Of a stretch of DNA of 64,000 nt, positions 11,030 to 63,759 are shown in pieces. The first letter of the stretch is position 1, and each line of letters begins with the position of its first letter. The stretch is from Turnera subulata (Eukaryota > Streptophyta > Magnoliopsida > Malpighiales > Passifloraceae): NCBI GenBank assembly GCA_028386065.3, contig JAKUCV010003183.1:1-64000 (forward strand). Direction: 5' to 3'. The notes beneath the pieces were generated by a model. The model did not search any database. It saw only the letters and a list, made by a program, of their open reading frames with translations, and was not told the origin of the DNA. The translations under genes and the position numbers were made by a program.

Positions 11030-11165
11030 TGTTTGATGACCTAAACATGAGCTTAATAAGGATTATTAATGACTAATCATGTTTAGTGAATAATTATATA
11101 TTAATTTTGATGATTAACAAACTTGGTTAGATGTTTTTATATATTTGTGTTGATTGATATGCAGC

Positions 11166-12726
11166 TGTGAATACAAGACCCAAAAACACTTGGGCCTATT
11201 CACCTAACCTTTTCACCTTCTTCTTCGGGTCAATCCCATAATATTGGAGTCGCCACCCAAGTTTTATTAAGGACAAAACATGGGAAAAACCTTGATATGA
11301 CTCCTTTAGGCTACATGGTCATGGCGAACCAAAGTTATGGGATCAGGGGTTCGTCACAGATGGGAAGATGTTAGGTACCCATCCATGTTGGGTCGAGACA
11401 ATGTGCGATTATGAAATGCAAGTGTGCCTAGTGCAAGTGTGCAGGTGTGGAAAGTAAAGAGAAGGGGAGAAGAAGAAGATTTGGCTTGCATCCGTTGTAA
11501 GACAAAGATTACCTACGTACCCGAGTGATCGGGGTCAAAGCCACGTAGTTCTAAACATGGCACAAATCGACCACTTACATCATTAAAAGCATCAGCATGT
11601 AATCAAAAATGATCAATCAAAAGAGAGGGTTTAGTGTTACCTCTTGTAGCCCTCCTCTAGCTCCTTGCAATGGGTTGAGTTCTACACCCACCTTCTTGCC
11701 ATGGTTGATCCTCTTGTTGACCTCTCCTTGCTAAACCACTGCTAATGTTTCCCACGAAAATCCTCCAGAGTTTCTGCCTAAAGAATGTGTTTCTAGGCTT
11801 GGAGAAGTAGAGTTTCTCCAAGCACTCTAGGCTTATAGTTATGTATGTGAGAAAAGTGTGTCTCCTCCTTGAAATGTATGTGAGGGGTTCTATTTATAGT
11901 TCTCTGGGAAGCCTAGGGGCGTGGACCTGTTTAATGGTGAAGATTATGCCTGAAAATCTGGTCCAAAACCGCGTAGGATTGAATTGGGAACAAAAACGGC
12001 AAAAATCGGAGATTCTGGGCACCTACGACCGCCACTGCCGGCGGTCATCCTATGGATGACCCCCAGTGTCGGCGGTCTTGTGGGGCGACGACCGTCGGTC
12101 ACCCCGCGTGTCACCCGTTTTTTCCTTTTTCGGCCTCCAATCACCCTAACTTTGCCCTGATTTGATCCTACCGTGTAATTAACCCCTAATTAACCCAGAA
12201 TCACTCAATTACTTGATTATCACTCCCCCTAAATCATTCCATAACAAATTGACTACACCTTAATTCCTATTTCATACTAAAACATACCAAAAACAACATT
12301 TCTACATAAATGATGATTTAGCTCTGATTTTCCACGAAAATCAGAGTTAAAATTATCCTGCAAGAAATGTGTTAATGGGCTGGGTAAACTCTGGAGAATC
12401 CATTTACTTGGACCCTTAAACCTATTCCTAACCCAAAAATACATCATCTCAATATAATTGGGTTAAAAACAACTAAAAAAGGCCCAAGTAATACAATGAA
12501 ATGTATTTTAATATGAATAAACCTTATCATATGTTTTACCCTAAGATTAAATCATCCTAAGGTTTAAAGGCACAAAGGTTTAGATTACCAAAATACACTA
12601 ATTCTACTAAATTAAATTCTTATTACATCTTAACTCAAAATCAGATCTTCTCACTAACCTCAAGTTAAGCATGTTTTGGAATTCAGTTTTAGTAAAATAT
12701 TCGTGGGTCAAATTTGGATGTTCACA
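11166..12726 (-). repeat. 3' LTR of D
   Basis: The plus-strand copy runs from TGTGAATACAAGACCCAAAA to GGATGTTCACA, a TG..CA LTR of 1561 bp in reverse orientation. It contains a TATA box (TATTTATA at 11891-11898 on plus, TATAAATA on minus), a GGCGGTC hairpin cluster at about 12026-12100 and a PBS-like decamer (GGAGTCGCCA, 11246-11255). Confidence 0.9.
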
Positions 12727-12745
12727 GAAGCCCCTTGTTGATGAG
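12727..12745 (-). promoter_or_regulatory. Polypurine tract region of D
   Basis: On the minus strand, CAACAAGGGGCTTC abuts the TGTGAAC start of the 3' LTR. The same sequence with one change (CGAGGGGCTTC) abuts the 3' LTR of C at 34941. This would be the primer for plus-strand DNA synthesis. Confidence 0.7.
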
Positions 12746-12837
12746 TCCTTAGGAACTAAGGACGAAACAACGTAAGACAGGAACCACCAAATTTGAATGA
12801 TGAGTGTGTGGCGCGTGTCAAGTTTTGGAGTATCCCA

Positions 12838-13735
12838 TTCTCCTCTCTAGGAATCATCTCATCCTGGAGCTCTAGGAATCATCTCATCTTAGGTCTCGGG
12901 AATCATCTCATCTATCGGGTGGTCGACAAGGAATACTCCATCCTCGTCAGTTGGGTCTTGACTTAGGAATCATCACATCCCAAGTCTCGGGAATCATCTC
13001 ATCCTGAGGTGATAGAACTAGGTTGTCAACAACGAATACTCCCATCCTTGTCAGTTGGGTTTTGACTTGGGAATCATCTCATCCCAAGACGATAGAATCA
13101 TCTCATCTATCAACAAGGAATACTCCCATCCTTGTCAGCTGGGTTTTGACGATAAAATCATCTCATCTATCAGAAAGAAATACTCCCATCCTTGTCAGCT
13201 GGGTTTTGACTTGGGAATCATCTCATCCCAAGACGATAGAATCATCTCATCTATTAACAAGGAATACTCCCATCCTTGTCAGTTGGTTTTGTCTTAGGAA
13301 TCATCTCATCCCAAGACGACAGAATCATCTCATCTATCAACAAGGAATGCTCCCATCCTTGTCAGCTGGGTTTTGACGATAGAATCATCTCATCTATCAA
13401 CAAGAAATACTCCCATCCTTGTCAGCTGGGTTTTGACTTGGGAATCATCTCATCCCAAGACGATAGAATCTTCTCATCTATCAACAAGGAATACTCCCAT
13501 CCTTGTCAGCAGGGTTTTGACTTGGGAATCATCTCATCCCGAGACGATAGAATCATCTCATCTATCAACAAGGAATGCTACCATTCTTGTCAGCTGGGTT
13601 TTGACTTGGGAATCATCTCATCCCAAGATGATAGAATCATCTCCTCTATAAAAAAAGAATACTCCCATCCTTGCCAGCTGGGTTATGACTTGGGAATCAT
13701 CTCATCTCAAGATGATAGAATCATCTCATCCCAAA
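12838..13735 (-). repeat. 84-bp tandem array in the 3' region of D
   Basis: Roughly eight units of about 84 bp, some shortened to 60 bp, carry two GAATCATCTCATC cores each, followed by CAACAAGGAATACTCCCATCC. Because 84 is divisible by three, all plus-strand frames stay open and give false ORFs. A related array lies in the equivalent part of C (34240-34830). Tandem repeats in the 3' untranslated region are known for Ogre/Tat elements. Confidence 0.9.
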
Positions 13736-13924
13736 TGGCTTCGCCATTTGATTTTCATAAAAAACACCATCTCACGGCATGGCTATCTATTGTCTAGGCT
13801 TCTCGTGCCCCTACCGTCATCTAAGATGTCGCTTCGCGACTGTGTTGTCTATGTCTTGTGCATTACATGCCCCTACATCTCCATTTCCCGGCTTGGTTGT
13901 TGGGAATCATCTCATCCCGAGGTT

Positions 13925-14060
13925 TGATTTTGCGTGTATCGGGTACACGGCTTCGGCTTTGCGTGTATCAGGTACACGGCTTCGGTTTTGCGTTCTCTCA
14001 AGTTTTTTTTTTTTCTCATCTCTCAATTTTGCATGTACCGGGTACATGGCTCTGGGTTCA
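13925..14060 (-). repeat. ~31-bp GTACACGG repeats of D
   Basis: Three adjacent units of the type TTGCGTGTATCGGGTACACGGC are visible, the last diverged (GCATGTACCGGGTACATGGC). Each contains a short GTGTA..TACAC inverted repeat. The equivalent part of C (33928-34050) carries the same words in reverse orientation. Confidence 0.7.
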
Positions 14061-14514
14061 CTCCTCTCTGGGTTTTCTCTCATTTTCGGGTTAGGGTTGA
14101 AAGGGTTTCTGAAATTACCCTAATGTTTCTGGTCACCTCGCAGTCTCATGGTATTAAGAATGATTCTTTCTTATAGTCGGGTTGACTGGGTCCCACGCCC
14201 TTGCTTACTGGACCCAATGTTGTGCCCTTTAAGATTATACAAATCAAAAAGTGGGGTATGATGCCCTTAGCATCTCGTTATGGTCTTAGAGATGAGGTTC
14301 TAGTGAGCCCTTACTACCAGCTTTTCAAAGCCAACGGGAGCCGCGCTCTTGATTCAGGATTTTCAGGGAATCGGGATAAAGAATATAAAAAATGATTAAT
14401 TCAAACAATTTATTTCATTATTCGGGACTAAAAAATATGCATACAGGGTTTTATTTTAGTAGAAAGGCCGTTTCGGGGCGCAGACCCGTAAAAATCGAGG
14501 TTGGACCTGGAACA

Positions 14515-14625
14515 GAGGTGGCGGTCAAGCGAGGAGGCCCGCCAGATGACCGCCAGGGCTTGGCGGTCTTCTCGTGATGTCTGCCGGCCCTATTTCGGGT
14601 TTAAAAGCCCCTTCTCTTTTCTCTC
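14515..14625 (+). promoter_or_regulatory. Putative promoter of the antisense gene in D
   Basis: GGCGGTC / GACCGCC inverted repeats (14519-14571) precede a TTTAAAAG TATA-like box near 14599 and a pyrimidine-rich leader (CTTCTCTTTTCTCTCTCCC). The same order, hairpins then TATA, is seen in the LTRs of C and D and before the antisense gene of C. Promoter function is inferred. Confidence 0.5.
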
Positions 14626-15352
14626 TCCCTCATTCTCCGATCAAACACTTTCAAACCCCGAGCTCTCTCAATTTTCCCTCCTCCTTTTTATTCTCAAAAC
14701 ACCCCAAAACACCTCCCAACTCTCCCCAATTCTCATCCGTGGCATCATCATCATCCAATCTCTCTAAGTCGCGAGTGGGAAACCATGAGAAAATATCGTC
14801 CCAAATCCGACCCAGAGGAGATTCCACGCCTTTTGTTGAAATCTCCAGATAGGCACATCTCCTCCCAACTCCACAAAATTTAGGTAAGTGACTTTTAAGC
14901 CCAAAGACTCCTTGAATTTGAGTTTTGATTGATTTTTCGAGTTTATGCCCTCATACCTTTAGAATTCAAATTTATGCAATGCATGGTGTGTTTGACTGCT
15001 TGAGAATGTCCCTGGGATGTCTATGATGTTTGCCCCTACATTCATTTCACGGATTAAACACAAGAAATCACGAATTGAAGTTTTGCCCAAATTGGGGGTT
15101 TAGGGTTCTTTGCGAATTTTAGAGAATGTGGGTGATTCTGGCATTATTTTGATATGGCGAATATGTGGAATTGATGTTGGATGACTGGGTATTAATGGGC
15201 TTGTCCCAATTTTGGCCAATTTCGAACTTTGTCGGGGTGAATTTTTGTGATTTTCTTATGTTTTGACCCACAAATAAAACTGTGATACAATATTGGTATG
15301 TATGATGTAAATGTGCAATCTTACCCTTATGATGCATGTCTTGATGTGTGTG

Positions 15353-18300
15353 TGTAACGTCCCGGTTTGTCGACTGTCACTACAGACCAACACGGGACCT
15401 TTCCAACATGCTTTGTCCTCACTCACACGTTTCCGGGAAAAACTTCCCAGAAGGTCACCCATCGTAGAATTTCTCCAAGTCAAGCACGTTTAACTTTAGA
15501 GTTCTTCTAGAATGAGCGCCGAAAAGGTAGGCGCACCTTGTTGATATAGTTAGTACCCATCAAACCGTTTAAGCTATTCTCAATTGTACAGTCCCATACC
15601 TATACAACCTCGAAATCACTTCATTTGAGCTATTCTTAATTATACAGTCCCATACCCGTATAATTATGAAATCGCCCCAACTGTGCAGCCCCATCCCTAC
15701 ACAGTCTCAGGATCTCTCCTATTTCGGTGTGGATCGGTTCATTCCCGTGCCCTTCCGTCTAGAAGCCTGCCAGAAGCCGCTCCTTGTCCATGCTCATCCC
15801 GGCACCGACGTACACTTCCCGCCCTCATAGACCCCGGGATGTCACAGGCCCACCAGCTTCCGCTAGTTTCGTCCTCGAACCCTACACCATACTAGAGGAG
15901 TCCTGGAGCTCCGCTACCAAGCTGAAACACCCGTGTCCCAATTTGCAATAAAATACTTAAACACAAAGAAATTACCAAAATATCCTTGAAACCCAGGACA
16001 CGAAATCCAATATCAAAAATATCCAAAAATTCTTAAAAAAACGAGATGTCATAAAGAATAAAATCAAACCGGCTTAACAAGTCACATGACAACCCGGCAT
16101 CCTGTCGAAACATCATCAATATCAAATCCCGGCAACTCGCCGATAATGTAATCAAAATCAATAGTGACTTCTCAAATAAACCCAATGCAGCGGAAGTTAA
16201 GATAAAATTTAAAATAGCAAAAGTATATGATATGCATGCCGGCTCTATGGATCCAACTGGGAAATGAAGCACAGCTACCTGCTGGGATATCCACGTCCGC
16301 ACTCCGGGAAAAGAAAGAAAGAGACGACACGCTATCTATGAGTCTGAAAAACAACGTTGGCGATTATGTGAGTCGCCTACTCAGTGAGCAATATAAATCT
16401 AATTATGAAAGTGTGCAGAACAAGTCCGAAAGGAAGGAAGAGCAAGAAGACAAGTAAGCAACATACAACAACCAGTACTAACATGCCAAGACATTCAAGC
16501 AAACAGTTCATTATTCTCCATTTGTTGTGTGTTAAGTTTTATTATTATAATTTATTATTCAGGGCCCCCTACTGCATATTATCTTAATTCACAAGTTATG
16601 AGTTTATGTGTGCCAATAGTTGTGATTTAACAGGGTTGTGTGATAAATTAACTCAATCAAATAACCAGGTCTCCGACCCACAACACATCACACATAACAC
16701 CCAAAATCACTCCACATGTTATATTCCATAACAACCCAAATATCAAGCTCACAAGCAAACAGTACACTTAGGCACACAATACGGATCACAGCATGTTAGC
16801 AAACAGGCATGCAACTCAAACAAACTAATCCAACAAGCTCATGCATACAAACATAAAAAGACGTATAAAGTCACCTCAACGACGATTGTCCTGTGGAGCT
16901 TTTCCCAAAACAGATCCTCCAGCCCCCGAGGCGTTACCCGTGCCTGAATACCGGCACACACAACAAATTACAAACAATCACAATAAATCGTGCATGCATG
17001 ATAACTATAATGCTCAACTGAGTTAAACCCGTCCCTAGTTAGCCAATTATGAAATTCCCGGGTCTAAACCCGACATGATGTTCTCTCACCTAAACTCCGA
17101 GTATCGGGACCTAAGGTTCACTGGGCTTAAGCCCAACTAAGTCCAAAAGTAGTTCCCGGGCCTATGGCCCACTCATTATGTTCTTAACGGTTCCCGGCCT
17201 AAAGTCCAATCTAAGTCCAAATTTCAATTTCCGGGCCTAAGGCCCACTTCCTCAAGTCCTTAATCAACCAAGTATGAAATTGGGCTCGAAGCCCGTTACT
17301 TAAATCCATGGTCAACCCGAGCCCAAAGATTCCCGGCCTATGGTTCTATCCGTGTCGGTAAATTCCCGGTTATACACACTCACAGCCCCGCACCCGGTAT
17401 TCCACTAAATAATTTCAATTCCCGATACACAATTATGCTTACAATAATTATTACATGCCATGAATGGGTTTAGAACATCAAATCTCGCATCGAGGTAATA
17501 CCGTAATTGCCGGAACAAAAACCCGAACCTTCGCCGGAAAATTCCCGAGCCTCGCTGGATTCCGATGACCTTGCCGGAAAACCAACAACAAAGCCCAACA
17601 ACTACCCCCAACGAATCTGCCACAATCCCAAACAACGATCACATACAATTTCACAGCAGTCATAATCACAAATCCGTCAACAAAAAGAATTGAGGAAGAA
17701 AGTAAACCCGCAGGCACACTCACCGGAAATCGAGTCCTCACCGTCGACACCAGTCTTGAACCCAAGCTCACACCCACTGCCGGAACAGACCACCAACACC
17801 GGCGAGCAGAACCCCGACACGCACCCAAGCAAACCCGCCACCGTCCACGGCACGACAAACACCCAACAATCCGCCACCAATCCGACCTGAGACAACACAA
17901 CAACCCAAACACCACCACACCGCCGGCAACCCCAACCGGTGCAACAGTACCAGACACCATCAACACCAACAAAGCCAACCCGGTTAGACAACCGGCCAAT
18001 GAGAAACAAAGACAAAGGAAGAAGGAAGAGGAGGACGGCGAGGCTTACCAGCAACGACCGTGGGAACCCCGAGCCCGACCTCGGCTTCCTGGCGTTCGTC
18101 CTCGTCTGACGCGACCCGGTCTTGGTGTGGATGGCGGCGAAACGGAGAGGAGGCAAGGGTGGGTACGGCGGAAGTGAAGAGAGGTGATGGCGGTGGTTTC
18201 GAGAGAGGAGGGGAAGAGATGTTGGTGACGGCGAGAGGGCGAGAGAGAAAGAGAGGGAGAGAGAAGATGAGAGGAGAAGGAAAGGGCGCCGTCAGGTGAG

Positions 18301-18693
18301 GAAGAGAGGAAGAAAAGAAAAGAAAAGAGAGAAAGAGGAGGAAGAGAGGGAGAGGGCTTTTAGGATTGGCCGGCTCAGCCCCGAAACGACGTCGTTTCGG
18401 GCTGAGGCGCGGTCAACCCACTTCAGTCAACGCGCGCAGTTGGGTTTTTTTTTTTTAAAACTCCAAAACGACGTAGTTTCGATCGAAGCCTCAACAAGAC
18501 CCGTGTTTCACCCCGAAACACATTCCAATATCAACGAAACGCGAAGCATGAGAAATCCCAACTTGAAATTGACATCTTCAAGGCATAATAATTTATTTCC
18601 TCGACTAAAACTCGAAAATACCACAAGGGCAAAATTGGAATAAAAATTTCAAAAATTTCGAAAAAACAAATTATGGAAATTCGGGGCGTTACA
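15353..18693 (-). mobile_element. E: composite LTR-type insertion in intron 1 of the antisense gene
   Basis: The outer ends are inverted (TGTAACGTCCCG at 15353 and CGGGGCGTTACA ending 18693) and near-TSDs GTGTG/GTATG flank it. On the minus strand a 2.77 kb LTR-like stretch (18693 to 15922, TGTAACG..GTTTCA) is followed by a TTGGTAGCGGAGC initiator-tRNA-type PBS, about 75 nt with a TTCGAGGACGAA motif, then a 495-bp TGTGACATCCCGG..TTACA segment (15847-15353) with a 5S-rRNA-like part. No coding domain is seen. The long part resembles chromovirus (Tekay-like) LTRs, and the short part the 5S-bearing LTRs of Cassandra. The two LTR-like parts are not alike, so it is a chimera or heavily rearranged. 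Open frames in its GC-rich part (17400-18400) look fortuitous. Confidence 0.62.
15428..15545 (-). ncRNA. 5S-rRNA-derived sequence inside E (not a functional gene)
   Basis: On the minus strand the sequence matches the 3' two-thirds of plant 5S rRNA. GATGGGTGACCTTCTGGGAAG corresponds to the C-box region with one change, and AGAACTCTAAAGTTAAACGT to the A-box region with three changes over 25 bases. The first third is replaced. Such sequences are the hallmark of Cassandra-type LTRs, where they supply a possible RNA polymerase III promoter. Confidence 0.75.
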
Positions 18694-20601
18694 GTATGGT
18701 TTTGGATTGATCTTGGTGAACCCGGGTTGGCATGAGTATTGACTTCTTTTGGCATATCTACACAGGACTCGAAGGATAGGCAGCGAAATCATGCCGGGGC
18801 TAATGCCCGCCATCTCATCCTTGAGCATGTGAGGTGGGACAGGCCTGTCCAAGAGATCATTGAGAGTTTCGGGTTGTGGGACTTCTTTCGCACTTTCTGA
18901 GGGGACTGGGTTGACCTACAGGCTATATTGGCCCTAGGCGAGAGGTGGTGGGAAGCCCCCAATACCTTCCATTTTGCCTGTGGTGAGATGACGATGACCC
19001 CTTAGGATTTTACCCACATTAGTGGGCTGGTATTCCAAGGTGATCCGGTCGTCTTTGATCAGCAATTAGGCATCGATCGCTTTCAGGAGTTGGTGGGGCT
19101 TGTTCCTGACTGGGTCCGCATATGTGAGGTATCTCCTACATGGCTGCAAAATGCCTTTTTGGATCCTCGCTATTCAGGGACGGCTGAGCAGAGAGTCCGG
19201 AGCTTGATATTAGCGAGCATGAGTAGAACCCTCTTTGCTTCCGGTGGTGATCGGGTTCGGTGTGATTTACTGGTGTCGCTTGTCCACCTGGAGGGACCAT
19301 GGATTGATTGAGCCTCAGCGGGTTTCGCGAACGCCTACTGGGAGAAGTGCAACTTTTCCCGGATTGCTGCCAAGCACTTCTATAGTTCAGCTTTGATTTG
19401 GGAGGTCTGTCCTTTGTCCTTGTGCCTTCTTATCATATTTGTCTGTCTCTTCGTCTCCTTATTTATTCGAGTAATCTTGGCAGGTGTAGGGTCAAGAGTA
19501 TCTTGGGTTGTCTGCTCCGAAGCTGCCGGCTGATGAGAAGTCGTGGCCAGTTTCTCTCCGTTGGGGCTCCCCGAGCCGTGGGACTATGAGCAATGCCCAC
19601 GACCGAGTACGGGCCCATCACTACATAGATCAGGTTGCCATGTCGGGCAAGGTATCTTTTCTCTTTCATCTCTTGTTTCCCGGAAAACCTTTTCCGCAAC
19701 ATTGTCTCACCGAACACTTATTGGCAGATCCAGTTTTCTCCTTTCGCGGCTTACCAGGATATTTTGAAGAGGATTGATTCTATGACTCTAGTGATGGATC
19801 ACTGTTGATGCTTGATAGGGTACCCTGATATGAGGGTGTGGTACCTCGGGGATCGTGTATGTGCGTAGACCATTGATCTCCCATGCATACCACGCGACCC
19901 TCCGATCTCCATGCGACACATTAATGAGCGAGTTGGGGCCCCTGAAGGCGATCATTTGGATTGGCATGCTGATGACTTGACCTTACCAGGCGACTACTCA
20001 TCCTTCATCAGTGAGTTTCTGATGCTTCCCTTGACTACCCCCGACGCAGGTGGGTCAGTGGCCGGTACTGGTCCTTCTCGTCAAAGCTCCGCCTCCCGGA
20101 GAAGGAAGGGTGCTGGGGCATCTTCTTCATCTGGTCCCGTCCTCCCAGCTTGCGAGGCCGAGTTTGAGACCTTTGATGACTCATACAGGCGCTGTCGGGT
20201 ACCCTTTTCAGAAGACCTACCCCCCGACTTTCCATCATTCCCGGCGGATATCACCACGGTACCATCATTATCATTATCCCAAATGTCCTCTTCCTTCTCC
20301 TCCTTTGTAGCTTGATTGACCTTCTTTGTATGAATAGGTTCCGGCCGCTGAGGTTTCTCAACTTTGGTCACTGCTTAGACAGGCCAAGGCAACCCTGACG
20401 GCCCAAGCCATCCGGATACGGGAGTTGACTTCTTGTGTGAGAAAGAGAGGGTATGCTCACCCCGTGCCATTATCTAGAGATCCCCGTCCTCCTGGGCCTT
20501 CGGTAGCACCTTTTTCCCCTCAGTCGATTCCTCATCCTACTGATCCTACATCGGGTGATTCCGAGGATATAATACAGGAGCACACTAGGTCGGTTCGCTA
20601 A

Positions 20602-21870
20602 ACCTGGAGTAAGTAGAGATGGTCTTGATTGATGCATGTATGCCTTATCGTCTAGAAGCTTGTACTATGGTGGACTATCCTTTGTTTTGTATGCATGCGT
20701 GTGCCCTAAGTTCTCGACTCAAGTATTTGGATGGGATTACCCTTTATGAATGCATGTTTTATTTCTCCTGTTTCCAAAATGTAATTATGTATGCAATTCA
20801 AAAAAAACTGCCGAACTGCATGCCATGAGTAGTGGGACAAGCCAGGTATAAGGTTTAAAGGATTTGTACAAGGTCGCCTAAAAACACCTACTTCTCTTTG
20901 TTGGGTTTACAAACAAAAATTATTTCAAGAAAGGATTTCCATGAGCATGATCGTGCCCTGAGTCTCCCCAAACACCATTTGGCCTTAACTTTTGCCTAGG
21001 TCGCCCTTTTGGGTTTTCAACCTAGCAGGCATGTTCTAAATTTTGCCTAGATTGCCCTTTCGGGTTTTTCATCTAGCGGACTAGTCCCCCTCTCTTTACT
21101 CCATTTTTTACTTTCTTCCTCCGAGGATGGTGATCGGATTTTACCCAGGTGATGGCGAGTTCCAAACCTTTTTATCTTGCGGTGACCTTCTTCCGGCGGT
21201 GGCTCGATTTTGGCCCTCCTTTGTCTTGAGAATATGGCCCGAAAAAATCTAGGGATACTGCCTTTTGAGCATTGAAGGAGGTTTTCTCAAAAGATATAAT
21301 CTAGACCCAAACCTTATCATCTTTTATCAACCTAGCTTAGGAACCAACTTTTGTCTAGACCGAGCTCTTTTAATAGAGTTACCTACGTACCAGTAGAAAA
21401 TAATGTTCATTTTCAAATCGCAAGGAAGTGCCTTTCTTGAGAAGTTTGAATGGCACATTGGTTGTGGATACATGTCCCTTTTTCCTTTTTTTTCTTTTTC
21501 CCTTTTTCCCTTTTTTTTTTGGGGAAATGACCTCACAAGCCAGGCTTATTAATCCAAGACGAAGTAATTGATTTGAAAAAATTTTGATTTACTGGATCAA
21601 GTCTTCGTAGTTCATTTATGGTTCCCAAACTAAGTTGATAAATTCTGATGAGACTTAAGACATTGATTCCATAAATGAGGGGGATTAGAACATCCATTAC
21701 ATGATTGTAAGGAAAAGACATTAATAAAAGACCAACAACATTGACTCCTCAAGGTGAAGTTGACATGGATAGGCTTCAACCTTCTTTTATTTTAAGAATA
21801 TAAAGAAAACAGACTCGATGCTTTAAGACCCCTAAGACTTCTTATCCTCCCCATTAGCTGTTCTAAACAT
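20602..21870. other. Non-coding interior of D with CCTAGGTCGCCC inverted repeats
   Basis: No domain is seen on either strand. Around 20990-21080 two copies of TTTTGCCTAG(G/A)T(C/T)GCCCTTT..TTC(A)(A/T)C(C/T)TAGC form short stem-loops (CTAGGT..ACCTAG). This is downstream of the antisense gene and could hold its 3' UTR. Confidence 0.4.
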
Positions 21871-21955
21871 CCTCCTCCATCACCCATTTGATCTTATCCG
21901 GGTACACGAGCTTTCTTCGTGGGACTATAGTGACAATTTCCTTCGGGTCATCATG

Positions 21956-22444
21956 TCAGATTCCAATTGTCATTGTCTCGTCTCCCACCCCCGAACTATC
22001 TTTATCTCCCTTATCGGTCATCATGTCATCATGCGATTTTGAGTATTCTTCGGATCCTGTGGCATAACCCCAATCATCCCACTTGCTTTCTTGCAACTCC
22101 TGGATGCATTTCCAGAGACTTTCTTTAGCGTTGACACTTTCTCGAGTGAGGGCGGCATTCTGGAGTTGGATGCACCTCATCACATCTTCAATAAGTTCAA
22201 ATTATCCAATGGCATCTCGGAATTGCTTCATGGCTACTTGGGCAAATGGTTGGCCAAGCAAGAACCCACGAAGGATCGTCTCCTCTAATTGGCCCATCAG
22301 AGTTCGAAATGTTGATTGCACCTCTTTCTCTTGTTGGAGACTCCGGTCTTCATAAACTGGAAAATCATCTTCCGTGGGTTTTCCCCTCAGTCACGTTCTC
22401 GTGCCGGTAGCACCTTCCAGCTGGTTAGCATGCTCATTGCTCAT
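21956..22444 (-). pseudogene. Unknown ORF near the 5' end of D
   Basis: Reading from ATG at 22444 the frame begins MSNEHANQLEGATG, meets a TGA after 17 codons and a TAA later, and runs on to the TGA at 21956. It is hydrophilic and Gln/Glu-rich, with helical segments (LQQEKEVQSTFRTLMGQL, MRCIQLQNAALTRE) suggesting coiled coil, and an acidic tail. More similar-looking acidic sequence follows beyond the stop to about 21870. It occupies the place of gag in C but has no visible gag motif or zinc knuckle. I do not recognise the family; it may be a degenerate gag or an accessory ORF1. Confidence 0.45.
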
Positions 22445-23165
22445 GGTTCCTCTTGACTGTCAAAAGTGAAGAAGTGGGTTTCAGTGCATTGCTCAGGTGG
22501 GCTTAAAAGAGGATTGGTGACACATGGCTCAGATGAAAAATGTAGAACATGGGTAAAACCCCGACTCGGCACACTACATTTTTAAAATTCAATGCAGAAT
22601 GACGTGTATTAGGCAGTCCTAATTCTTTAAATTCTCAGGGTAATTGAGCATCTACTCGAATCATCAAAATGAATCTCTTCTGAACTTTGGCGGATCGCTG
22701 CTTGAAGACATGGGATGTTCCCCTCCCTTAATTGCCATGGATGACTAATCTTCTTTCCTCTTTCCTCAAGATCTCGTGTATGCACAAATTCGAATCCCAA
22801 AATAAAAGATACCATACACATATATCACATTGCAAATTTCACATGAAGGCACGTACCACTTATTGATTCATAATGCATGAGATGCTCAAGGTATGCAGCT
22901 GGTTGGATGCCAAAAGATTGTCGCTAGGGAATAAGCTGACCTACTCACATGTGATAAAGGATATCGCGTGAGGTTCAAGGCCAATTAATCCCCATCATTG
23001 CTAAGCATCGAGAAACAGGTTCATTCAAACCACCATCGCTTAAGCAAAGCATGTGGTGGATTTGGATTCCCTCGCCCTCTTAAGGTAAAGGCTTCACATC
23101 AATTGTTATGAATGCAAGGCACTTATGATGACAAATAAATGGCACACAAGATTTAACAATTTCAC

Positions 23166-23251
23166 AAAGTCTCTTGAACCCACTACTTCCCCAGAGGAGT
23201 CGCCAACGGCGAATACCCGACCCAAAGTCTCTTGAACCCACTACTTCCCCA
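23166..23251. repeat. Direct duplication spanning the LTR-PBS junction of D
   Basis: A 28-nt string starting AAAGTCTCTTGAACCCACTA occurs at 23166-23193 (beside the PBS, as in C) and again at 23224-23251 inside the LTR, where C has different sequence. Both copies end close to GGAGTC(G/C)CC, a word shared by the PBS and the LTR interior. This suggests a template slip between them. Confidence 0.85.
23187..23206 (-). promoter_or_regulatory. Primer-binding site of D
   Basis: Minus-strand TTGGCGACTCCTCTGGGGAA starts one base after the LTR end. It differs by one base from the PBS of C (26501). This PBS type is characteristic of plant Tat/Ogre-like gypsy elements. Confidence 0.85.
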
Positions 23252-24748
23252 TTGGAGTCCCCACCCAAGTTTTATTAAGGACAAAACTTGGGAAAAACCT
23301 TGATATGACTCCTTTAGGCTACATGGTCATGGCGAACCAAAGTTATGGGATCGGGGGTTCGTCACAGATGGGAAGGTGTTAGGCACCCATCCATGTTGGG
23401 TTGAGACAATGTGCAATTATAAAATGCAAGTGTGCCTAGTGCAAGTGTGCGGGTGTGGAAAGTAAAGAGAAGGGAAGAAGAAGAAGATTTGGCTTACATC
23501 CCATTGTAAGACCGAGATTACCTACGTACCCGAGTGATCGAGGTCAAAGCCACGTAGTTCTAAACATGGCACAAATCGGCCACTTACATCATTAAAAGTA
23601 TCAGCATGTAATCAACAAAGACCAATCAAAAGAGAGGGTTTAGTGTTACCTCTTGTAGCCCTCCTCTAGCTCCTTGCAATGGGTTGAGTTCTACACCCAC
23701 CTTCTTGCCATGGTTGATCCTCCTCTTGACCTCTCCTTGCTGAACCACTGCTAATGTTTCCCACGAAAATCCTCCAGAGTTTTTGCCTAAAGAATGTGTT
23801 TCTAGGCTTGGAGAAGTAGAGTTTCTCCAAGCACTCAAGGCTTAAAGGTGCGTATGTGAGAAAAGTGTGTCTCCTCCTTGAAATGTATGTGAGTGGTCCT
23901 ATTTATAGTGCTCTGGGAAGCCTAGGGGCGTGGACCTGTTTAATGGTGAAGATTATTCCTGAAAATCTGCTCTAAAACCGCGTAGGATCGAATTGGGAAC
24001 AAAATCGGCAAAAATCGGAGATTCTGGGCACCTATGACCGCCGCTGCCGGCGGTCATCCAGCTGGCGGTCATGTGGGGATGACTGCTAGCACCTGGCAGT
24101 CGTCGCGAGAGGACCGCCGGGTACCCCGCGTGTCACCCGTTCTTTCGTTTTTCGGCCTCCAATCCCCCTAATTCAGCCCTGATTTGATCCTACTGTGTAA
24201 TTATCTCTTAATTAACCCAGAATCACTCAATTACTTGATTATCACTCCCCCTAAATCATTCCATAACAAATTGATTACACCTTAATGCCAATTTCATACT
24301 AAATCATACCAAAAACAACATTTCTATATTAATGATGATTTAGCTCTGATTTTCCACGAAAATCAGAGTTAAAATTATCCTGCAAGAAATGTATTAATGG
24401 GCTGGGTAAACTCTAGAGAATCCATTTACTTGGACCCTTAAACCCATTCCTAACCCAAAAATAAATCATCTCAATATAATTGGGTTAAAAACAACTAAAA
24501 AAGGCCCAAGTAATACAATGAAATGTATTTTAATATGAATAAACCTTATCATATGTTTTACCCTAAGATAAAATCATCCTAAGGTTTAGAGGCACAAAGG
24601 TTTAGATTACCAAAATACACTATTTCTACTAAATTAAATTCTTACTATATCTTAACTCAAAATCAGATCATCTCACTAACCTCAAGTTAAGCATGTTTTG
24701 GAATTCAGTTTTAATAAAATATTCGCGGGTCAAATTTGGGTGTTCACA
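23208..24748 (-). repeat. 5' LTR of D
   Basis: The copy runs from GGCGAATACCC (the expected TGTGAATAC end, mutated) to GGTGTTCACA, 1541 bp. It carries the TATA box (TATTTATA on plus, 23900-23907) and a hairpin ATGACCGCC / GGCGGTCAT at 24034-24057. It is closely similar to 11166-12726 except for the duplicated PBS-side sequence at its left end. Confidence 0.9.
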
Positions 24749-25004
24749 GCAGCGTGGTTTCGTACAAGAACCACACAAAAACCACGAACTTGGTTTCTGC
24801 AAGAAACCACACTTTACTATCAACATCAGAAGTGGTCCTGCTGCAAGTTGCTGGTGGCCCAGGTGGTCCTTACAGCATTAAACCTCAACCCCCAACTACT
24901 CCAACGGGCAGAGAAAGTGGTTCATGGCAAAGATGAAGACCTGCAACACTTATCTCTCACCTCCAGGCTCAATTATCAATTGTGGTCCATACTTATGGTC
25001 CCGG

Positions 25005-26499
25005 TGTGAACACCCAAATTTGACCCACGATTGTTTTGCTAACGTGCTTCACTTGAGGTTAATGAGATGATTTGATTTTAAGTCATGGCATGATAAGAAT
25101 TTAATTTAGTAGAATTAAGGTACATTTCATTTCATTGCTTGGGTTCTTTTAGTTGTTTTTAATCCAATTATATACTGATTCATTTTTGGGTTAGGAATGG
25201 GTTTAAGGGTCCAAGTAAATGGATTCTCCAGGATTTACCCAGCCCATTAACACATTTCTTGCAGGTTAATTCTAGCTCTGATTTTCATGGAAAATCAGAG
25301 TTAAATCATCATTTATGTAGAAATGTTGTTTTTGGCATGATTTAGTATAAAATAGGCATTAAGGTGTAATTAATCTGTTATGAAATGATTGAGGGGAGTG
25401 ATAATCAGGTAATGGAGTGATTCTGGGTTGATTAGGGGTTAATTACGTAGTAGGATCAAATCAGGGCTGAATTAGGGGGATCGGGGGTCCCGAAAATGGA
25501 AAGAACGGGTGACACGCGGGGCAACCGGCGGTCATCTCGTTACGACCGCCACGTGCTGGCGGGCATCCACTCAAGACCACCGGCACTGGCGGTCAAGCAG
25601 TGCATGACCGCCGACAGCGGCGGTCATGTCCTCCCAGATTCGCCCAAATCTTCGATTTTGTTTCTAATTTCGATCCTACGTGGTTTTGCACCAGATTTTC
25701 GGGCATAATCTTCACCATAAAGCAGGTCCACGCCCCTAGGCTTCCCAGAGCACTATAAATAGGACCCTTCACACATATTTCAAGAGATCACACAATTTTC
25801 TCACACACACAACTATAAGCCTTGAGTGCTTGTAGAAACTCTACTTCTCCAAGCCTAGAAATACACTCTTTAGGCAGAAACTCTGGAGGAATTTTGTGGG
25901 AGGCATTAGCAGTAGTCCAGCAAGGAGAAGTCAAGAAGAGGATCAACCATAGAGCTTAGAAACGGCAAGAAGGTGGGTGTAGAACTCAACCCAAAGCAAG
26001 GAGCTAGAGGAGGGCTACAAGAGGTAACACTAAACCTTCTTTTTTATTGATTCTTTGCTGAATATACGCTGATACTTTTGATGATGTAAGTGGCCGATTT
26101 GTGCCATGTTTAGAACTATGTAGCTTTGACCCTGAACACTCGGGTACGCAGGTAATCTCGGTCTTACAACGGGAGGCAAGCCAAATCTTCTTCTTCTCCC
26201 GTTCTCTTTATTTTCCACACATGCACACTTGCACTAGGCACACTTGCATTTTACAATTGCACATAGTCTCGATGCAACACGGACGGGTGCCTAACACCTT
26301 CCCATCTATGACGAACCCCCGATCCCATAACTTTGGTTCGCCATGACCATGTAGCCTAAAGGAGTCATATTAAGGTTTTTCCCAAGTTTTGTCCTTAGTA
26401 AAACTTGGGTGGCGACTCCAATGTTATGGGATTGACCCGAGGAAGAAGGTGAAAGAATTAAGTGAATAGGCCCAAGTGATTTTGGGTCGGGTATTCACA
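25005..26499 (+). repeat. 5' LTR of C
   Basis: TGTGAACACCCAAATTTGACC..GGGTCGGGTATTCACA, 1495 bp. Relative to the LTRs of D it lacks about 100 nt near 25110. It includes hairpins (25518-25632), the TATA box and the PBS-like TGGCGACTCC at 26410-26419. Confidence 0.93.
25518..25760 (+). promoter_or_regulatory. LTR promoter of C: GGCGGTC hairpins and TATA box
   Basis: Several GGCGGTC/GACCGCC words form stems. The best is ATGACCGCCG-ACAG-CGGCGGTCAT (25604-25627), a perfect 10-bp stem with a 4-nt loop. TATAAATA (25753-25760) lies about 125 nt downstream. TATA position marks the U3/R region; a role of the hairpins is inferred. Confidence 0.7.
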
Positions 26500-26500
26500 G

Positions 26501-26520
26501 TTGGCGACTCCGCTGGGGAA
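26501..26520 (+). promoter_or_regulatory. Primer-binding site of C
   Basis: TTGGCGACTCCGCTGGGGAA begins one base after the 5' LTR. It is the tRNA-primer site for minus-strand synthesis. The same decamer TGGCGACTCC also occurs 92 nt upstream inside the LTR. Confidence 0.88.
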
Positions 26521-26993
26521 GTAGTGGGTTCAAGAGACTTTGTGCAATTGTTGAAATCTTATGTGCCTTTTACTTGTCATCATAAGTGCCTTGCATTCAG
26601 AGAATTGATGTGAAGCCTTTACCTTAAGAGGGCGAGGGAATCCAAATCCGCTACATGCTTTCCTTAAGCGATAGTGGTTTGAGTGAACCCGTTTCTCGAT
26701 GCTTAGCAATGATGGGGATTAATTGGCCTCGGACCTCACGCGATATCCTTTATCACATGTGAGTAGGTCAGCCTATTCCTTAGCGACAATCTTTTGGCCC
26801 CCAACCAACTGCATACCCTGAGCTTCTCATGCATTATGAATCAATAAGTGGTTTGTGCATTTGAGCGATCAATTGTTGTGAATTCAAGTAAATGTAAATA
26901 GAGTGCCTCCTTCATGACCCTTACCCTAAAAAAGAGTGATCCCCTTGGGTACCTAGAGTTTCACACCTATCTTCCCTCAATATTAGTGCAAGA

Positions 26994-28133
26994 TGAGTGA
27001 AGATAACACTGCCAAGATAGATGCGGCCATGGAGTCTCTATTACAAGATCCAGCTGTAAGGGATGCATTGATGATGCTTAAGCATGAAACAGCGTCCCCT
27101 GGGAGTAATGGGGGTGAACTTCAACACAAGACGAGGGTGGAACGACACAAGGCGGTGGTTCGATGATTCAAGGGCCCAAAAAAGAAGAGGAAAGGCTCAG
27201 GAAGGTGGAGGAATTATTGAAGGCCAAGAAGAGGAAGGAGGATGACTAGAACCCCGAAGCCCGACTGCCAGAAAAATTCAAGATGCCTGACGTTGAGAAG
27301 TTTAATGGAGTGGGATGCCCTAAAACCCACTTGAAGATTTATGTGAGAATGCTGCAGTCCATGGGGATAGGACCGGAATTGATGGTTCAATTATTCCAAA
27401 GAACGTTGTCTGGGGCGGCTTTGAGATGGTTCATGACTTTGGATCAGAATAGGGTAAGCCAATGGGCGAAATTTGCACAGAATTCCTAGATTAGTACAGC
27501 TACAACACAGAAGTAGATGTAACCAAGAGGGATCTGGAAATGACTAAGCAGGAAGCCATGGAAACATTCTCTGCTTTCATTTCTAGGTGGCTCAACAAGG
27601 CTTCCCTAATGGTGAACCGACCTACTGAGGAAGATCAGATACAGATGGTTATTAGGAACCTTCAACCGGCTTACTACAACCATATAATTGGCAACTACTA
27701 TGTCAATTTCAAAGCACTTATTGGAGCAGGGATGCAGCTAGAAGACGCCATCAACTTCGGGAAGATCAAGGTGCTGGCAGAAACTTCGACACTTAGAAGG
27801 AACCCAAATTCGGCTTTTGGAAAGAAATCAACCGGGATAAATCATGTGACTGCCCAAGTTGGACCTGAACCCAGAATATTTGCTCCTTTGCCTACGTCTT
27901 TGGGGAAGATGTTCAAAAAATATGTGGAAGGAGGTTTACTACAACCCCTAGAGCCTAAGCGTAGCCTGATGGCTAGAGGTGACCCAAGCAAGTACTGTGA
28001 ATTTCACCAAATGACCGGGCACACCACTAACGAATGCCTCCAACTCCGATACAAGATTCAGAATTTGGTGGAACGAAAAGAGGTCATATTTCCCAACCAG
28101 AATCTCACCCCGGGAATTAACTTTACAGAATAG
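26994..28133 (+). pseudogene. gag of C (Tat type), broken
   Basis: A start at 26994 opens MSEDNTAKIDAAMESLL. After frame changes near 27150 and a TAG near 27249 the gag core is read from 27283: MPDVEKFNGVGCPKTHLKIY and LSGAALRWFMTL, typical of plant gypsy capsid. A TAG at 27487 and a frame change lead to a second open part (27540-28133), with EAMETFSAFISRWLNKAS and a zinc-knuckle-like YCEFHQMTGHTTNEC. It would form the particle and package RNA. At least three breaks make it non-functional. The region after it, where protease is expected, shows no D-S/T-G motif. Confidence 0.82.
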
Positions 28134-28217
28134 ATAGACGAGGAAGATTGCTTCACGCTCAGTATTGGCCAAAGAAAGGAAGAAGGAAGACTTGCAAGGA
28201 CGGTCATCCACGACACT

Positions 28218-31200
28218 ATGCGGAGAGGCAAGAATTGGGATTGGCACAGACCAAGCATCATCTTCAAGACAAGTGGGGGAGAAGCTGACATGGGTTCTTC
28301 TGCAGTCTCTGAGTCTGAGAGTGAGTCTGAAACAAATAGTGAGCTTGAAGATGTAACCAAGGAACAGGATAGTGATTCCCTTGACCTTAGCCTCTCTTGT
28401 TCTAAAACCTTGAAGAATGATGATGTCCCTATATCCCAAAGTAATAAAATGACACACTCTTTTGCTTACTTAGATGTTTTCTGTGATGATATTTGTTGCA
28501 TGCGTAATATGTGTGAATGTAATGAGATGAATGAACTCCCGGATTCTATCGAAGTCAATCTGGGCACTGATATTGATCCAAAGATCACGAGGATTGGTAC
28601 GGCTCTCGAAAGTTCAATCCAAGATCACTTAGCAGCTTTGGTCAAGGAGTATGTGGATGTATTTGCATGGTCCTATGAAGATATGCCAGGTATTGATCCA
28701 GCCATCACCCAATATAGAATTCTCCTCTTTCCCAATGCCAAACCTGTGAAGCTGAAGGCCCGCCGTCTTCAACCTCAGTGGGCCTTGAAGGTGAAAGAAG
28801 AAGTTGAGAAGTAAATTCGAGCCGGGTTTCTTGAAGTGATTGAGTATCCTGAATGGTTAGCCAACATAGTGCCAATCCCGAAGAAGGATAGGAAAGTGAG
28901 GATGTGTGTAGATTACTGAGATTTGAACAAGGCCTGCCCTAAGGATGAGTTTCCACTACCGCACATTGATTTGTTGGTGGATGCAACGACCAGGCATGCA
29001 TTGTTATCCTTCGTGGATGGATTCTCAGGGTACAATCAAGGGAAAATGGCGCCAGAAGATAAACATAAAACGTCCTTCCGAACAGAATGGGAAACATTTT
29101 GTTACAAAGTCATGCCTTTCAGATTGATCAACACCAGGGCAACATACCAAAGAATGGCCACTACACTCTTACACGACATGATGCATAAAGAGGTCGAGGC
29201 TTATGTTGATGATATGATCGTGAAGTCAGAGACTCGGGATTCCCATATGGCCAATCTAAGGAAGTTCTTTGAGAGATGTAGGGAATTCGGCATGAGAATC
29301 AACCCTCAAAAGTGTGTCTTTGGTGTTCAACCAGGAAAGCTGTTGGGCTTCATGGTAAGCGAACGAGGTATAGAAGTGGACCTTCCAAGTTCAAAGCCAT
29401 TCAAGAAATGCCAACCCCAAAGAGCCAGAAAGAAATCCGAAGCTTTCTTGGAAGAATACAATATGTTAGCCGTTCATTGCTCAACTCTCTAGCATTTGTG
29501 CACCCATCCACCGCTTACTTAAGAAGGGAGTTCCGGTTGAATGGTATGACAAGTGCCAAGACGCTTTCGAGCAAATCAAGAAGTATTTGTCTAATCCCTC
29601 AGTACTCCAGCCTCCAAGGCCAGGGAAGCCCTTGTTGCTATATCTGACTGTCACAGAAGAGTCTATGGGCACAATGCTAGCCCAATACCTGCCCGACTCT
29701 CGCACTGAGGCTGCCATCTATTACTTAAGCAAGAAGTTCAATGGTTATGAGTTGAATTACAACATGGTGGAAAAGACGTGTGTGGCTTTAACGTGGGCCT
29801 ATCAAAAGCTCCGACACTATTTCATCTCCTTTGAAGTCTTGCTCATTTCTCGAATGGACCCCATCAAGTACTTAATGGAGAAGCCAGTGCCAAGTAACAG
29901 CACAAGCAGATGGGTGGCCATCCTGCCACAATTCAATGTCCGGTTTATTTCACAAAAGGACATCAAAGGAGGCGCCATAGCTGATTTCTTAGCTTCTCTA
30001 CCGGTGGGGAATCATGAGAGGTTCAAACCACAATTCCCCGACGAAGAAATAATGAACTTAGATACACCCACCTGGGAGATGCATTTTGATGGGGCTGCCA
30101 ACGCAAGTGGTTTTAGAACGGGAGTAATTCTCATGTCTCCTGATGGAGTGACTTATCCAATTTCCTGCAAATTGGAATTTAAGGAGACCAATAATGTGGC
30201 TGAGTATGAAGCATGCACCATCGGCTTAGAGATAGCACTCAACATGGGGATGAAGCAGATAAAGAGTATTTGGGGATTTAGCTCTGGTAATTTTCCAAGT
30301 GAAGGGAGAATGGAAGATCAAAGAAGAAAAATTGGCACCTAACCACGATTACTTGCAGGCCCTAGCCATCAAATTTGAAGTAATAGATTTTCAGTATGTA
30401 CCAAGGGAGGACAATCAGTTCGCTAATACATTAGCCATACTTTCTTCAATGATGGGAATGCCAAACAATGCCACCATCTTGCCATTGACAGTCCGGAGGA
30501 GAGGAAGTCCATCCTTCCGCCAGAAAGAGGAGGCAAATGAATCCTGGTTTCAAGGTTACTTGAAGGAATTGAACCCCGACAAAGTTTGCATCTTGGCCCT
30601 CACTACTACAAAGATGAATCGACCATTACATGCCCAGATTGAACACGACGGTGACTCGGGTTATTGGTATGAAGACATATTGAAATACCTTAGGGAAGGG
30701 ACATTCCCCGAGGGGACGACAACCGTAGAAAAGAAGACTCTAAGAAGACTAGCTGGAGGGTATGTCATATGCGCCGGGAAACTATACAAGAGACACGCTA
30801 CGTGGGTCTACTTGTTATGTGTAGATACAAAGGAGGCAAAGCAGATCATGAAGAAAGTACACGAAGGAGATGAGGGCCCGCACATTGGAGGTGACATGTT
30901 GGCTCGGAAAATACCGCGGTTGGGATACTTTTGGTCAACAATGGAGGCTGATTGTGCAAAATTTGTGAAGTGTTTTCATACAGGCCAAGTTCATGGAAAG
31001 TTGCAGCAAAGGCCTCCACTACCATTAGCCCCCATGTCCTCACCTTGGCCATTCTCAGCGTGGGGCATTGGTGTTATTGGAAAAATAACCCTGAAGGCTG
31101 CAAATGGACACGAGTACATACTGGTGGCCATTGATTATTTTACCAAGTGGGTGGAAGCCGAGTCATACGCTGTGCTCACATCTAAAAAGGTGGCCGAATT

Positions 31201-31865: not shown

Positions 31866-32100
31866 TTTGAATCGATGTAAAAAGAACTACGTAGACCTGA
31901 TTCCTTGAGCTCAAAGTAAAGAAAGGACAAAAAAAAAGACGAGCCATTGATACGTAGGAAGCCCAACTCGGGTCTGGTCATTTTATTAATAAAAAGGCCA
32001 AAGATTGACAAAAAAGGAAATGGGAGTTCATTTATTCATTTATTTTGCATGCATTATACATGTCATGAATATTCATCTAAGCAAGATATCTAAGTAGGCT
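31866..32100. other. Spacer between pol and the antisense gene of C
   Basis: AT-rich, with an A-run near 31931 and TTTTATTAATAAAAA at 31980. It separates two convergent genes and may hold both 3' UTRs. No protein motif is seen. Confidence 0.4.
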
Positions 32101-33380: not shown

Positions 33381-33439
33381 GGCTACCTCCGATGTGTTTG
33401 GAAGATATTCTAATGCGTTATAGGGGTCTCTGGGTTCCC

Positions 33440-33625
33440 AGGGATATACTTATACTGTTTTAGGGGTCGGTGGGAATCGCAAAAACCCTAAAGCCCAAAC
33501 CCGAAGACCGAAAAGGAAGTTCCAGGAGTCCACGACCGCCATCGCCGGCGGTCATGTCGTGATGACCGCCCCTGCCGGCGGTCATCCATGCAAGACCGCC
33601 GGAAGGCGGCGGTCATCCGCTTACA
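33440..33625 (-). promoter_or_regulatory. Putative promoter of the antisense gene in C
   Basis: Upstream of the minus-strand ATG lie AGTATAAGTATA (minus strand, near 33448) and, about 80-170 nt further up, three GGCGGTC/GACCGCC stems, e.g. ATGACCGCC / GGCGGTCAT at 33562-33585. The layout copies that of the LTR promoters. Function is inferred. Confidence 0.5.
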
Positions 33626-56945: not shown

Positions 56946-56959
56946 GTCTCCCAGTTGCA

Positions 56960-63754: not shown

Positions 63755-63759
63755 GAGAT

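What the first reader, a model, noticed from the sequence alone, without database searches (positions are those of the whole stretch)
14785..20601. Intron-bearing antisense gene carried inside a retrotransposon (D)
Seen: five exons on the strand opposite to D. All four introns are GT-AG, all exon lengths are multiples of three, and three introns of 79, 76 and 79 nt join conserved plant-mobile-domain-like motifs in frame. Established: extra ORFs, some antisense, are known in Tat-lineage gypsy elements, and the plant mobile domain occurs in both host silencing proteins and transposons. Inference: because the gene is antisense, its introns are not recognised in the element's own RNA and survive each retrotransposition cycle, so a complete gene with promoter and introns can be amplified.
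Basis: partly seen in the sequence, partly recalled or inferred. Interest (0 to 1): 0.88.

Follow-up and report, generated by a model that had tools for sequence, protein, structure and literature searches.

The report
Antisense intron-bearing gene in a retrotransposon
A plant virus-like jumping element carries, backwards on its other strand, a now broken gene whose likely introns would survive each copying through RNA because they would not be recognised in that RNA, and a neighbouring related element carries a different backward gene with a likely intron at the matching place.

Summary
Window 14785-20601 (+) contains five exon frames (99, 639, 168, 531, 264 nt) joined by four GT-AG introns. 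The joined frame matches the plant mobile domain PF10536 at 67.1 bits (cut-off 34.9). The score rises exon by exon (50.7, 54.8, 67.1); unspliced reads of that frame give 47.5-49.3. The host element D is real: 11166-24748, minus strand, 5-bp target duplications, LTRs 93-95% alike.

(1) The copy is broken: seven in-frame stops. (2) Intron 1 is about 541 nt, enlarged by a later 3.34-kb insertion. (3) D has no recognisable gag or pol, so it is probably non-autonomous. (4) The neighbour E (25005-35491) carries a different antisense gene, DUF7745, with a likely 73-nt intron at the same estimated place in the PMD profile (180/181).

New here: GACCGCC/GGCGGTC arrays (22 hits, 2.33 expected). 21 of 22 lie in three LTR promoters and upstream of both antisense genes, whose flanks do not match.

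Antisense extra ORFs and gypsy PMDs are known, and spliced antisense genes are known in HTLV-1. Antisense introns in a plant LTR element were not seen in the searches made. No RNA data and no further D copies could be examined.

The parts
11166..24748 (-). Element D: LTR retrotransposon, 13,583 bp, no gag or pol domain found
   Evidence: LTR pair and TSD GCAGC on both sides; no Pfam gag/pol in the three minus frames of 20602-23250 and of 12727-20601
11161..11165 (.). Left target duplication GCAGC
24749..24753 (.). Right target duplication GCAGC
11166..12726 (-). D 3' LTR
23207..24748 (-). D 5' LTR (inner end rearranged, boundary approximate; 23217 was used in the alignments)
23189..23206 (-). 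Primer-binding-site-like sequence next to the 5' LTR; same place and nearly the same sequence as in E
   Evidence: sequence
12845..13730 (.). Tandem repeats near the D 3' LTR, shared with E
14520..14568 (+). GACCGCC/GGCGGTC array upstream of the antisense gene
14600..14607 (+). TATA-like box of the antisense gene (candidate)
   Evidence: sequence
14785..14883 (+). Exon 1 (last codon is a stop in this copy)
14884..18765 (+). Intron 1, about 541 nt without the insertion
15353..18693 (.). Later 3341-bp insertion in intron 1, TGTAACG...CGTTACA ends, imperfect TSD; solo LTR or DNA element
   Evidence: no direct repeat of 60 bp or more inside it
18766..19404 (+). Exon 2, N-terminal part of the plant mobile domain
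   Evidence: PF10536 50.7 bits
19405..19483 (+). Intron 2, 79 nt, 48% T, at about PMD profile 180/181
19484..19651 (+). Exon 3
   Evidence: extends the PMD match to 228; no match alone
19652..19727 (+). Intron 3, 76 nt, 38% T
19728..20258 (+). Exon 4
   Evidence: extends the PMD match to 282, 67.1 bits; no match alone
20259..20337 (+). Intron 4, 79 nt, 42% T (outside the domain)
20338..20601 (+). Exon 5 with terminal stop
21866..22444 (-). Sense-strand ORF remnant of D (193 codons, stops present), no Pfam match
22855..23234 (-). D leader, 92.6% identical to the E leader 26473-26852
25005..35491 (+). Element E: related LTR element with pol remains, TSD CCCGG
32723..33307 (-). E antisense gene, exon a (DUF7745)
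32650..32722 (-). E antisense intron, 73 nt GT-AG, 41% T, matching estimated position to D intron 2
32335..32649 (-). E antisense gene, exon b
33444..33454 (-). TATA-like box of the E antisense gene (candidate)
33534..33614 (-). GACCGCC/GGCGGTC array upstream of the E antisense gene
12027..12077 (-). Same array in the D 3' LTR promoter
24036..24118 (-). Same array in the D 5' LTR promoter
25527..25625 (+). Same array in the E 5' LTR promoter

Best explanation
D is a plant LTR retrotransposon with both ends intact but no recognisable gag or pol, and it carries on its antisense strand a broken plant-mobile-domain gene with likely introns, which would persist through retrotransposition because the element's own RNA would hold only their reverse complement. 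Shown by sequence: LTRs, target duplication, orientation, the PMD match that grows as exons are joined, the stops, and a sister element E with a different antisense gene. Estimated from profile matches: E's likely intron sits at the same position as D's intron 2. Inferred: the gene was transcribed from its own promoter and spliced by the host, the genomic RNA made from the LTR was not cut at these sites, and related elements such as E supplied gag and pol in trans. Inferred more weakly: the GACCGCC/GGCGGTC arrays, present upstream of the TATA-like box in three LTRs and in both antisense promoters, put sense and antisense transcription under one common factor.
For: D and E are bounded by perfect 5-bp duplications GCAGC and CCCGG. 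The PMD score rises from 50.7 (exon 2) to 54.8 (exons 1-3) to 67.1 bits (all exons), against 47.5-49.3 unspliced. The E antisense gene: exon a alone no match, exon b 23.5 bits, joined 32.0 bits to DUF7745 (cut-off 26), with a PMD match below that family's cut-off (17.6-19.5 against 34.9) running across the junction. Counting along the matches without gaps, the D intron 2 junction falls at PMD position 180/181 (joined residue 225 = 159, junction after 246) and so does the E junction (residue 55 = 171, junction after 64). Both are phase 0. The five introns measured are T-rich: D introns 2-4 48, 38 and 42%, D intron 1 without its insertion 38%, E 41%. GACCGCC on both strands: 22 hits, 2.33 expected, 0 of 100 shuffles reach 22; 21 of 22 lie in five promoter patches. 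The antisense promoters do not resemble each other or the E LTR downstream of the array, whereas the D and E LTRs do (5 shuffles per pair). E has reverse transcriptase (RVT_1 80.9 bits), RT_RNaseH (63.9) and then an RVT_3 domain whose two halves lie in two frames (21.9 and 34.4 bits). Literature: antisense ORFs between pol and 3' LTR, including one (maize Grande gene23) transcribed from its own promoter (PMC7264820, passages); PMD in 57% of Ogre elements (PMC6317226, passages).
Against: Only one PMD-bearing copy was seen. Homologue searches found no relative and the own-genome search did not complete, so amplification of this gene is not shown. Seven stops exceed the 1.4-1.9 expected since insertion (P 0.0005-0.0025), so the protein may have been dead before the last jump. 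Zero frameshifts is uninformative (0.6 expected). Exons 3 and 4 match nothing without exon 2. D intron 3 has no counterpart in E. Direct D-E protein alignment is not significant (170 of 500 shuffles reach the score), so the shared position rests on an ungapped count along the PMD profile. E is also broken (a stop, and frame changes before and after the aligned part). Introns 1 and 4 have no domain support. The promoter patches were chosen after seeing the motif hits. Antisense RNA could itself trigger silencing of the element by forming double-stranded RNA, as PMC7264820 points out (passages).
Confidence: 0.74

Rival explanations
1. One-off capture: an intron-bearing host PMD gene entered this D copy (or its recent parent) at the DNA level, and the pair was never amplified.
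For: Only one copy seen; D lacks recognisable gag/pol; genic PMD families exist (PMC5418596, passages).
Against: The gene sits between the element's own leader and its tandem-repeat/3' LTR module. E has an antisense gene in the same slot, with a likely intron at the same estimated profile position and the same promoter array.
Confidence: 0.14
2. No introns: a decayed intronless antisense ORF whose indels look like introns.
For: The copy is degenerate, GT and AG are common dinucleotides, and exons 3 and 4 match nothing without exon 2.
Against: Three separate gaps of 76-79 nt, all GT-AG, all phase 0 and T-rich; the domain match extends across two of them; E has a likely intron at the matching position. 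The LTR alignment shows one indel event in 1394 retained columns and five gaps over all columns, so three 76-79-nt insertions by decay are unlikely.
Confidence: 0.06
3. A nested DNA transposon (MULE) carrying PMD inserted into D.
For: PMD occurs in MULEs (PMC9289625, section read; PMC5418596, passages).
Against: No long, well-matched inverted repeats flank the gene in 14060-21400; the best flanking pair is 21 nt at 81%. The slot is used by an antisense gene in E too.
Confidence: 0.05
4. The motif array is a family minisatellite with no regulatory role, spread by template switching between LTR and internal region. (This concerns the array only and can be true together with the best explanation.)
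For: The array differs strongly between the two LTRs of D while the rest is about 95% identical, as expected of an unstable repeat.
Against: It lies upstream of a TATA-like box in all five places where it clusters; the only other hit in the window is a single one at 2898; flanks are not shared.
Confidence: 0.4

Closest known systems
Antisense additional ORFs of Tat-lineage plant elements (Grande, RIRE2, Retand)
   Same: Antisense coding region between pol and 3' LTR, tandem repeats nearby, sometimes an own promoter (PMC7264820, passages; PMC11963269, abstract and passages)
   Different: Those papers describe ORFs; 'intron' occurs 0 times in the main text of either. Retand typically carries TRP28, which was not found here.
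Gypsy-encoded PMD clades PMD-A1/A2 and Ogre PMD ORFs
   Same: PMD in gypsy elements of many angiosperms (PMC5418596 and PMC6317226, passages; PMC9289625, one section and passages)
   Different: No antisense intron structure described in what was read; clade placement of D untested
Sense-strand intron of Ogre elements
   Same: An intron inside a Tat-lineage element (PMC6317226, passages)
   Different: That intron lies between gag-prot and pol in the genomic RNA itself and is only partly spliced; here the likely introns are antisense
HTLV-1 HBZ
   Same: Antisense, spliced gene kept in a retroviral genome (PMC1459196, abstract)
   Different: Starts in the 3' LTR; unrelated protein; here the candidate start is internal, with several likely introns
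Reverse-oriented beta-globin lentiviral vectors
   Same: Orientation chosen to keep an intron through an RNA stage (PMC6775231, passages)
   Different: Engineered, not natural
VANDAL/VANC anti-silencing system
   Same: Element-specific short motifs arrayed in non-coding regions of a transposon that encodes a DNA-binding factor (PMC5735166, passages)
   Different: DNA transposon; binding shown there, nothing shown here

Membership tests
LTR retrotransposon (D) | Two LTRs, short target duplication, primer-binding site next to the 5' LTR | tested here: met
   which tRNA would prime was not tested
LTR retrotransposon (D) | Own gag and pol (autonomous member) | tested here: not met
   No gag/pol family in the three minus frames of 20602-23250 or of 12727-20601: filed as non-autonomous
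Tat lineage of Ty3/gypsy | Dual RNase H | tested here: inconclusive
   Met for E (RT_RNaseH, then RVT_3 split over two frames); D has no pol and joins only by LTR and leader similarity
Tat lineage of Ty3/gypsy | Reverse transcriptase phylogeny | not tested
   E has RVT_1 at 80.9 bits but no reference set was used
Tat lineage of Ty3/gypsy | Antisense ORF and tandem repeats between pol and 3' LTR | tested here: met
   E directly; D in the same relative place without pol
Plant mobile domain (PF10536) | Score above the gathering cut-off | tested here: met
   67.1 against 34.9 bits
Plant mobile domain (PF10536) | PMD-A (gypsy) clade | not testable with these tools
   No plant homologues reached
DUF7745 (E antisense gene) | Score above the gathering cut-off | tested here: met
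   32.0 against 26 bits when joined; below it when unjoined (20.1, 23.5)
MULE with PMD | Terminal inverted repeats around the gene | tested here: not met
Antisense spliced retroviral gene (HBZ type) | Spliced antisense RNA | not testable with these tools
   No RNA data
VANC-type anti-silencing | Element protein binds the motif array and removes silencing | not testable with these tools
   Array present; binding unknown

The most novel reading that the evidence does not exclude
This LTR family runs a two-way regulatory circuit. A cargo slot holds interchangeable antisense genes of the PMD/DUF7745 group, whose ancestral intron has been kept through retrotransposition by antisense orientation. 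The LTR promoter and the antisense promoter carry the same GACCGCC/GGCGGTC array, bound by the antisense-encoded protein, as a retrotransposon counterpart of VANC anti-silencing. Keeping introns may also help the antisense gene look like a host gene to silencing.
Probability: 0.17. Interest if true: 0.85.

Novelty: new variant of a known kind. Interest (0 to 1): 0.62.

Why it matters
Retrotransposition through RNA normally erases introns, so introns inside an LTR element are informative. If the antisense slot protects them, LTR elements could amplify host-like multi-exon genes, and the gypsy PMD genes from which the host silencing genes MAIN and MAIL1 may descend could have been intron-bearing all along. 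A shared intron position then becomes a character for testing which came first, the host or the retrotransposon PMD, a question that PMC5418596 calls fully open (passage). The shared promoter array is a concrete, testable link between the element's sense and antisense genes.

Tried and rejected
Homologues: the full joined protein (the 7997 candidates sharing most words were scored, none at E 0.001 or better), exon 2 (166 candidates, none) and a stop-free exon 2 piece against viral contigs (23 pattern matches, none confirmed). None found a relative, so copy number, dN/dS and splice-site conservation could not be tested. Solved structures: exon 2 gave only two matches, both at E 0.34, treated as chance. 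Direct D-E protein alignment was not significant. tRNA genes: none. Nested MULE: rejected for lack of flanking inverted repeats. Intactness at insertion: tested by a neutral simulation and not supported. Binomial P values for motif clustering are post hoc and not used as probabilities. For the LTR distance I dropped the motif-array columns and the rearranged inner end: all columns give 1411 of 1517 identical (93.0%), the kept 1394 columns give 67 mismatches and K 0.050. The age of about 1.9 million years printed there rests on a recalled rate. The E ORF 27540-28133, read by eye as gag, has no Pfam match.

Print: searched the held open library for antisense, intron, PMD, DUF7745 and additional ORFs in LTR elements. 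Searches listed every paper found (1, 9 and 4); the others listed the top 20 of 859, 20 of 154, 20 of 85 and 12 of 2706. No paper describing introns in an antisense plant-LTR gene was seen in the listings or passages read. The 2011 survey of extra ORFs by Steinbauerova and colleagues is not held, so this is weak evidence of absence.
Full report
What is there. D is bounded by TGTGAA...TTCACA LTR ends and a perfect 5-bp duplication GCAGC at 11161-11165 and 24749-24753, 13,583 bp in all, minus strand. Orientation follows from the primer-site-like sequence beside the right-hand LTR and the G-rich sequence beside the left-hand LTR, both at the same places as in E. E lies at 25005-35491 on the plus strand with duplication CCCGG and a shortened 551-bp 3' LTR. 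Its three plus frames hold reverse transcriptase (RVT_1 80.9 bits), RNase H (RT_RNaseH 63.9), a second RNase H-type domain split over two frames (RVT_3 21.9 and 34.4) and an integrase zinc-binding match below its cut-off (19.5 against 25.5). The ORF read as gag has no Pfam match. D and E share LTRs at 85-87%, the leader at 92.6% and the tandem-repeat module next to the 3' LTR; a sensitive comparison of their internal parts found nothing else. Between leader and repeats E has pol plus an antisense gene; D has a 193-codon sense ORF remnant of unknown kind and the antisense PMD gene, and no gag or pol match in any minus frame of 12727-23250. D is therefore probably non-autonomous and may use proteins of E-like elements (inference).

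The PMD match grows with each exon joined: 50.7 bits for exon 2 (profile to 159), 54.8 with exon 3 (to 228), 67.1 with exon 4 (to 282). Reading through the introns gives 49.3 or 47.5 and ends at 162 or 159, and the two other frames give nothing. On the other side, exons 3 and 4 match nothing alone or joined to each other, so they are seen only as extensions of exon 2. Introns 2-4 are T-rich, as plant introns are (a recalled property): mean 43% against 29% in random windows of the gene, P 0.0009. Intron 1 has a GTAAGT donor and is 541 nt, 38% T, once the 3341-bp later insertion is set aside. Introns 1 and 4 lie outside the domain and are less certain.

The copy is dead. It has seven in-frame stops, all TAG or TGA, and no frameshift in 567 codons. 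With an LTR distance of 0.050, a simple neutral simulation expects 1.4 to 1.9 stops since insertion, and seven or more occur in 0.05-0.25% of runs. Either this region decayed faster than the LTRs (methylated cytosines mutate fast; recalled), or D last moved with the gene already broken.

The second case. On the minus strand of E, exon a (32723-33307) alone has no Pfam match, exon b (32335-32649) alone gives DUF7745 at 23.5 bits, and joined across a 73-nt GT-AG intron they give 32.0 bits against a cut-off of 26. A weaker PMD match (17.6-19.5 bits, below its cut-off of 34.9) runs across the junction. Counting along the profile without gaps, the E junction and D's intron 2 junction both fall at PMD 180/181, both phase 0; the tool prints no alignment, so small gaps could shift this by a few positions. 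With a tolerance of three positions and two D introns inside a matched span of about 265, position alone would coincide about once in 19, or once in 57 with phase (my estimate). The proteins themselves are too far apart to align directly. The likeliest reading is one old intron kept in two cargo genes; two separate captures from intron-bearing relatives are not excluded. D intron 3 has no counterpart in E.

The promoter array. GACCGCC on either strand occurs 22 times in 64 kb against 2.33 expected. One hit lies alone at 2898. The other 21 form five clusters: both LTRs of D, the 5' LTR of E, and the stretch upstream of each antisense gene, each followed by a TATA-like sequence. Downstream of the array the two antisense promoters match neither each other nor the E LTR better than shuffled sequence (best 13-15 of 20, shuffles 12-15, five shuffles per pair), whereas D and E LTRs match 20 of 20. 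Within D the two LTRs are about 95% identical outside the array and the inner end, but their arrays differ strongly. A shared factor for LTR and antisense promoters is a natural reading; an unstable minisatellite without function is the rival. VANC proteins of VANDAL elements bind such element-specific arrays and undo silencing (PMC5735166, passages). That any PMD protein does so is speculation.

Mechanism. Shown: orientation, exon-intron sequence, domain. Inferred: RNA made from the LTR carries only the reverse complement of the introns, so the spliceosome would not see them, and cDNA would restore the gene with introns. The same logic is used on purpose in reverse-oriented globin vectors (PMC6775231, passages) and occurs in HTLV-1, whose antisense HBZ RNA is spliced (PMC1459196, abstract). 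An antisense gene with its own promoter is reported in maize Grande; the same review notes that antisense RNA may instead cause silencing through double-stranded RNA (PMC7264820, passages). In human cells, intron insertion counteracts HUSH silencing of transgenes (PMC8770142, abstract); whether plants have a counterpart that these introns would escape is open.

Place among the known. PMD in gypsy elements (57% of Ogre elements, PMC6317226, passages; ten species, 40 without the filter, PMC9289625, section read) and antisense ORFs in the Retand lineage (PMC11963269, abstract and passages) are established, and Ogre has a partly spliced sense intron (PMC6317226, passages). What adds to them is the antisense intron structure, its shared estimated position in two different antisense genes, and the shared array. 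I rate it a new variant of a known kind.

Limits. One copy of each gene, no RNA, no plant genome reachable (genome search did not complete), no reference set for phylogeny, and a literature library without most subscription papers.

Noticed in passing
window 15353-18693: 3341-bp insertion inside intron 1 with TGTAACGTCCCGG...CGGGGCGTTACA ends and a 4-of-5 target duplication; no direct repeat of 60 bp or more inside it, so a solo LTR or a DNA element.
   Followed up: partly
window 23176-23250: Inner end of the D 5' LTR is replaced by a second copy of leader sequence (GGGGAAGTAGTGGGTTCAAGAGACTTT), as if strand transfer went wrong during reverse transcription.
   Followed up: partly
window 12027-12077 and 24036-24118: The GACCGCC arrays of the two D LTRs differ strongly although the rest of the LTRs is about 95% identical.
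   Followed up: partly
window 34941-35491: The 3' LTR of E is 551 bp against 1495 bp for its 5' LTR: a large internal deletion that includes the promoter array.
   Followed up: partly
window 21866-22444: D sense-strand ORF of 193 codons with stops and no Pfam match; no match in E.
   Followed up: partly
window 3559-7682: Two adjoining long minus-strand ORFs (1064 and 310 aa) that look like reverse transcriptase and endonuclease of a LINE, without internal stops (identity recalled from motifs, not tested).
   Followed up: no
window 41203-63755: Stretches of about 1.5 kb that recur at about 95% identity (41203-42695 with 53264-54766; 55417-56946 with 62243-63755) around copia-like ORFs (read by eye): related elements nested or in series.
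   Followed up: no
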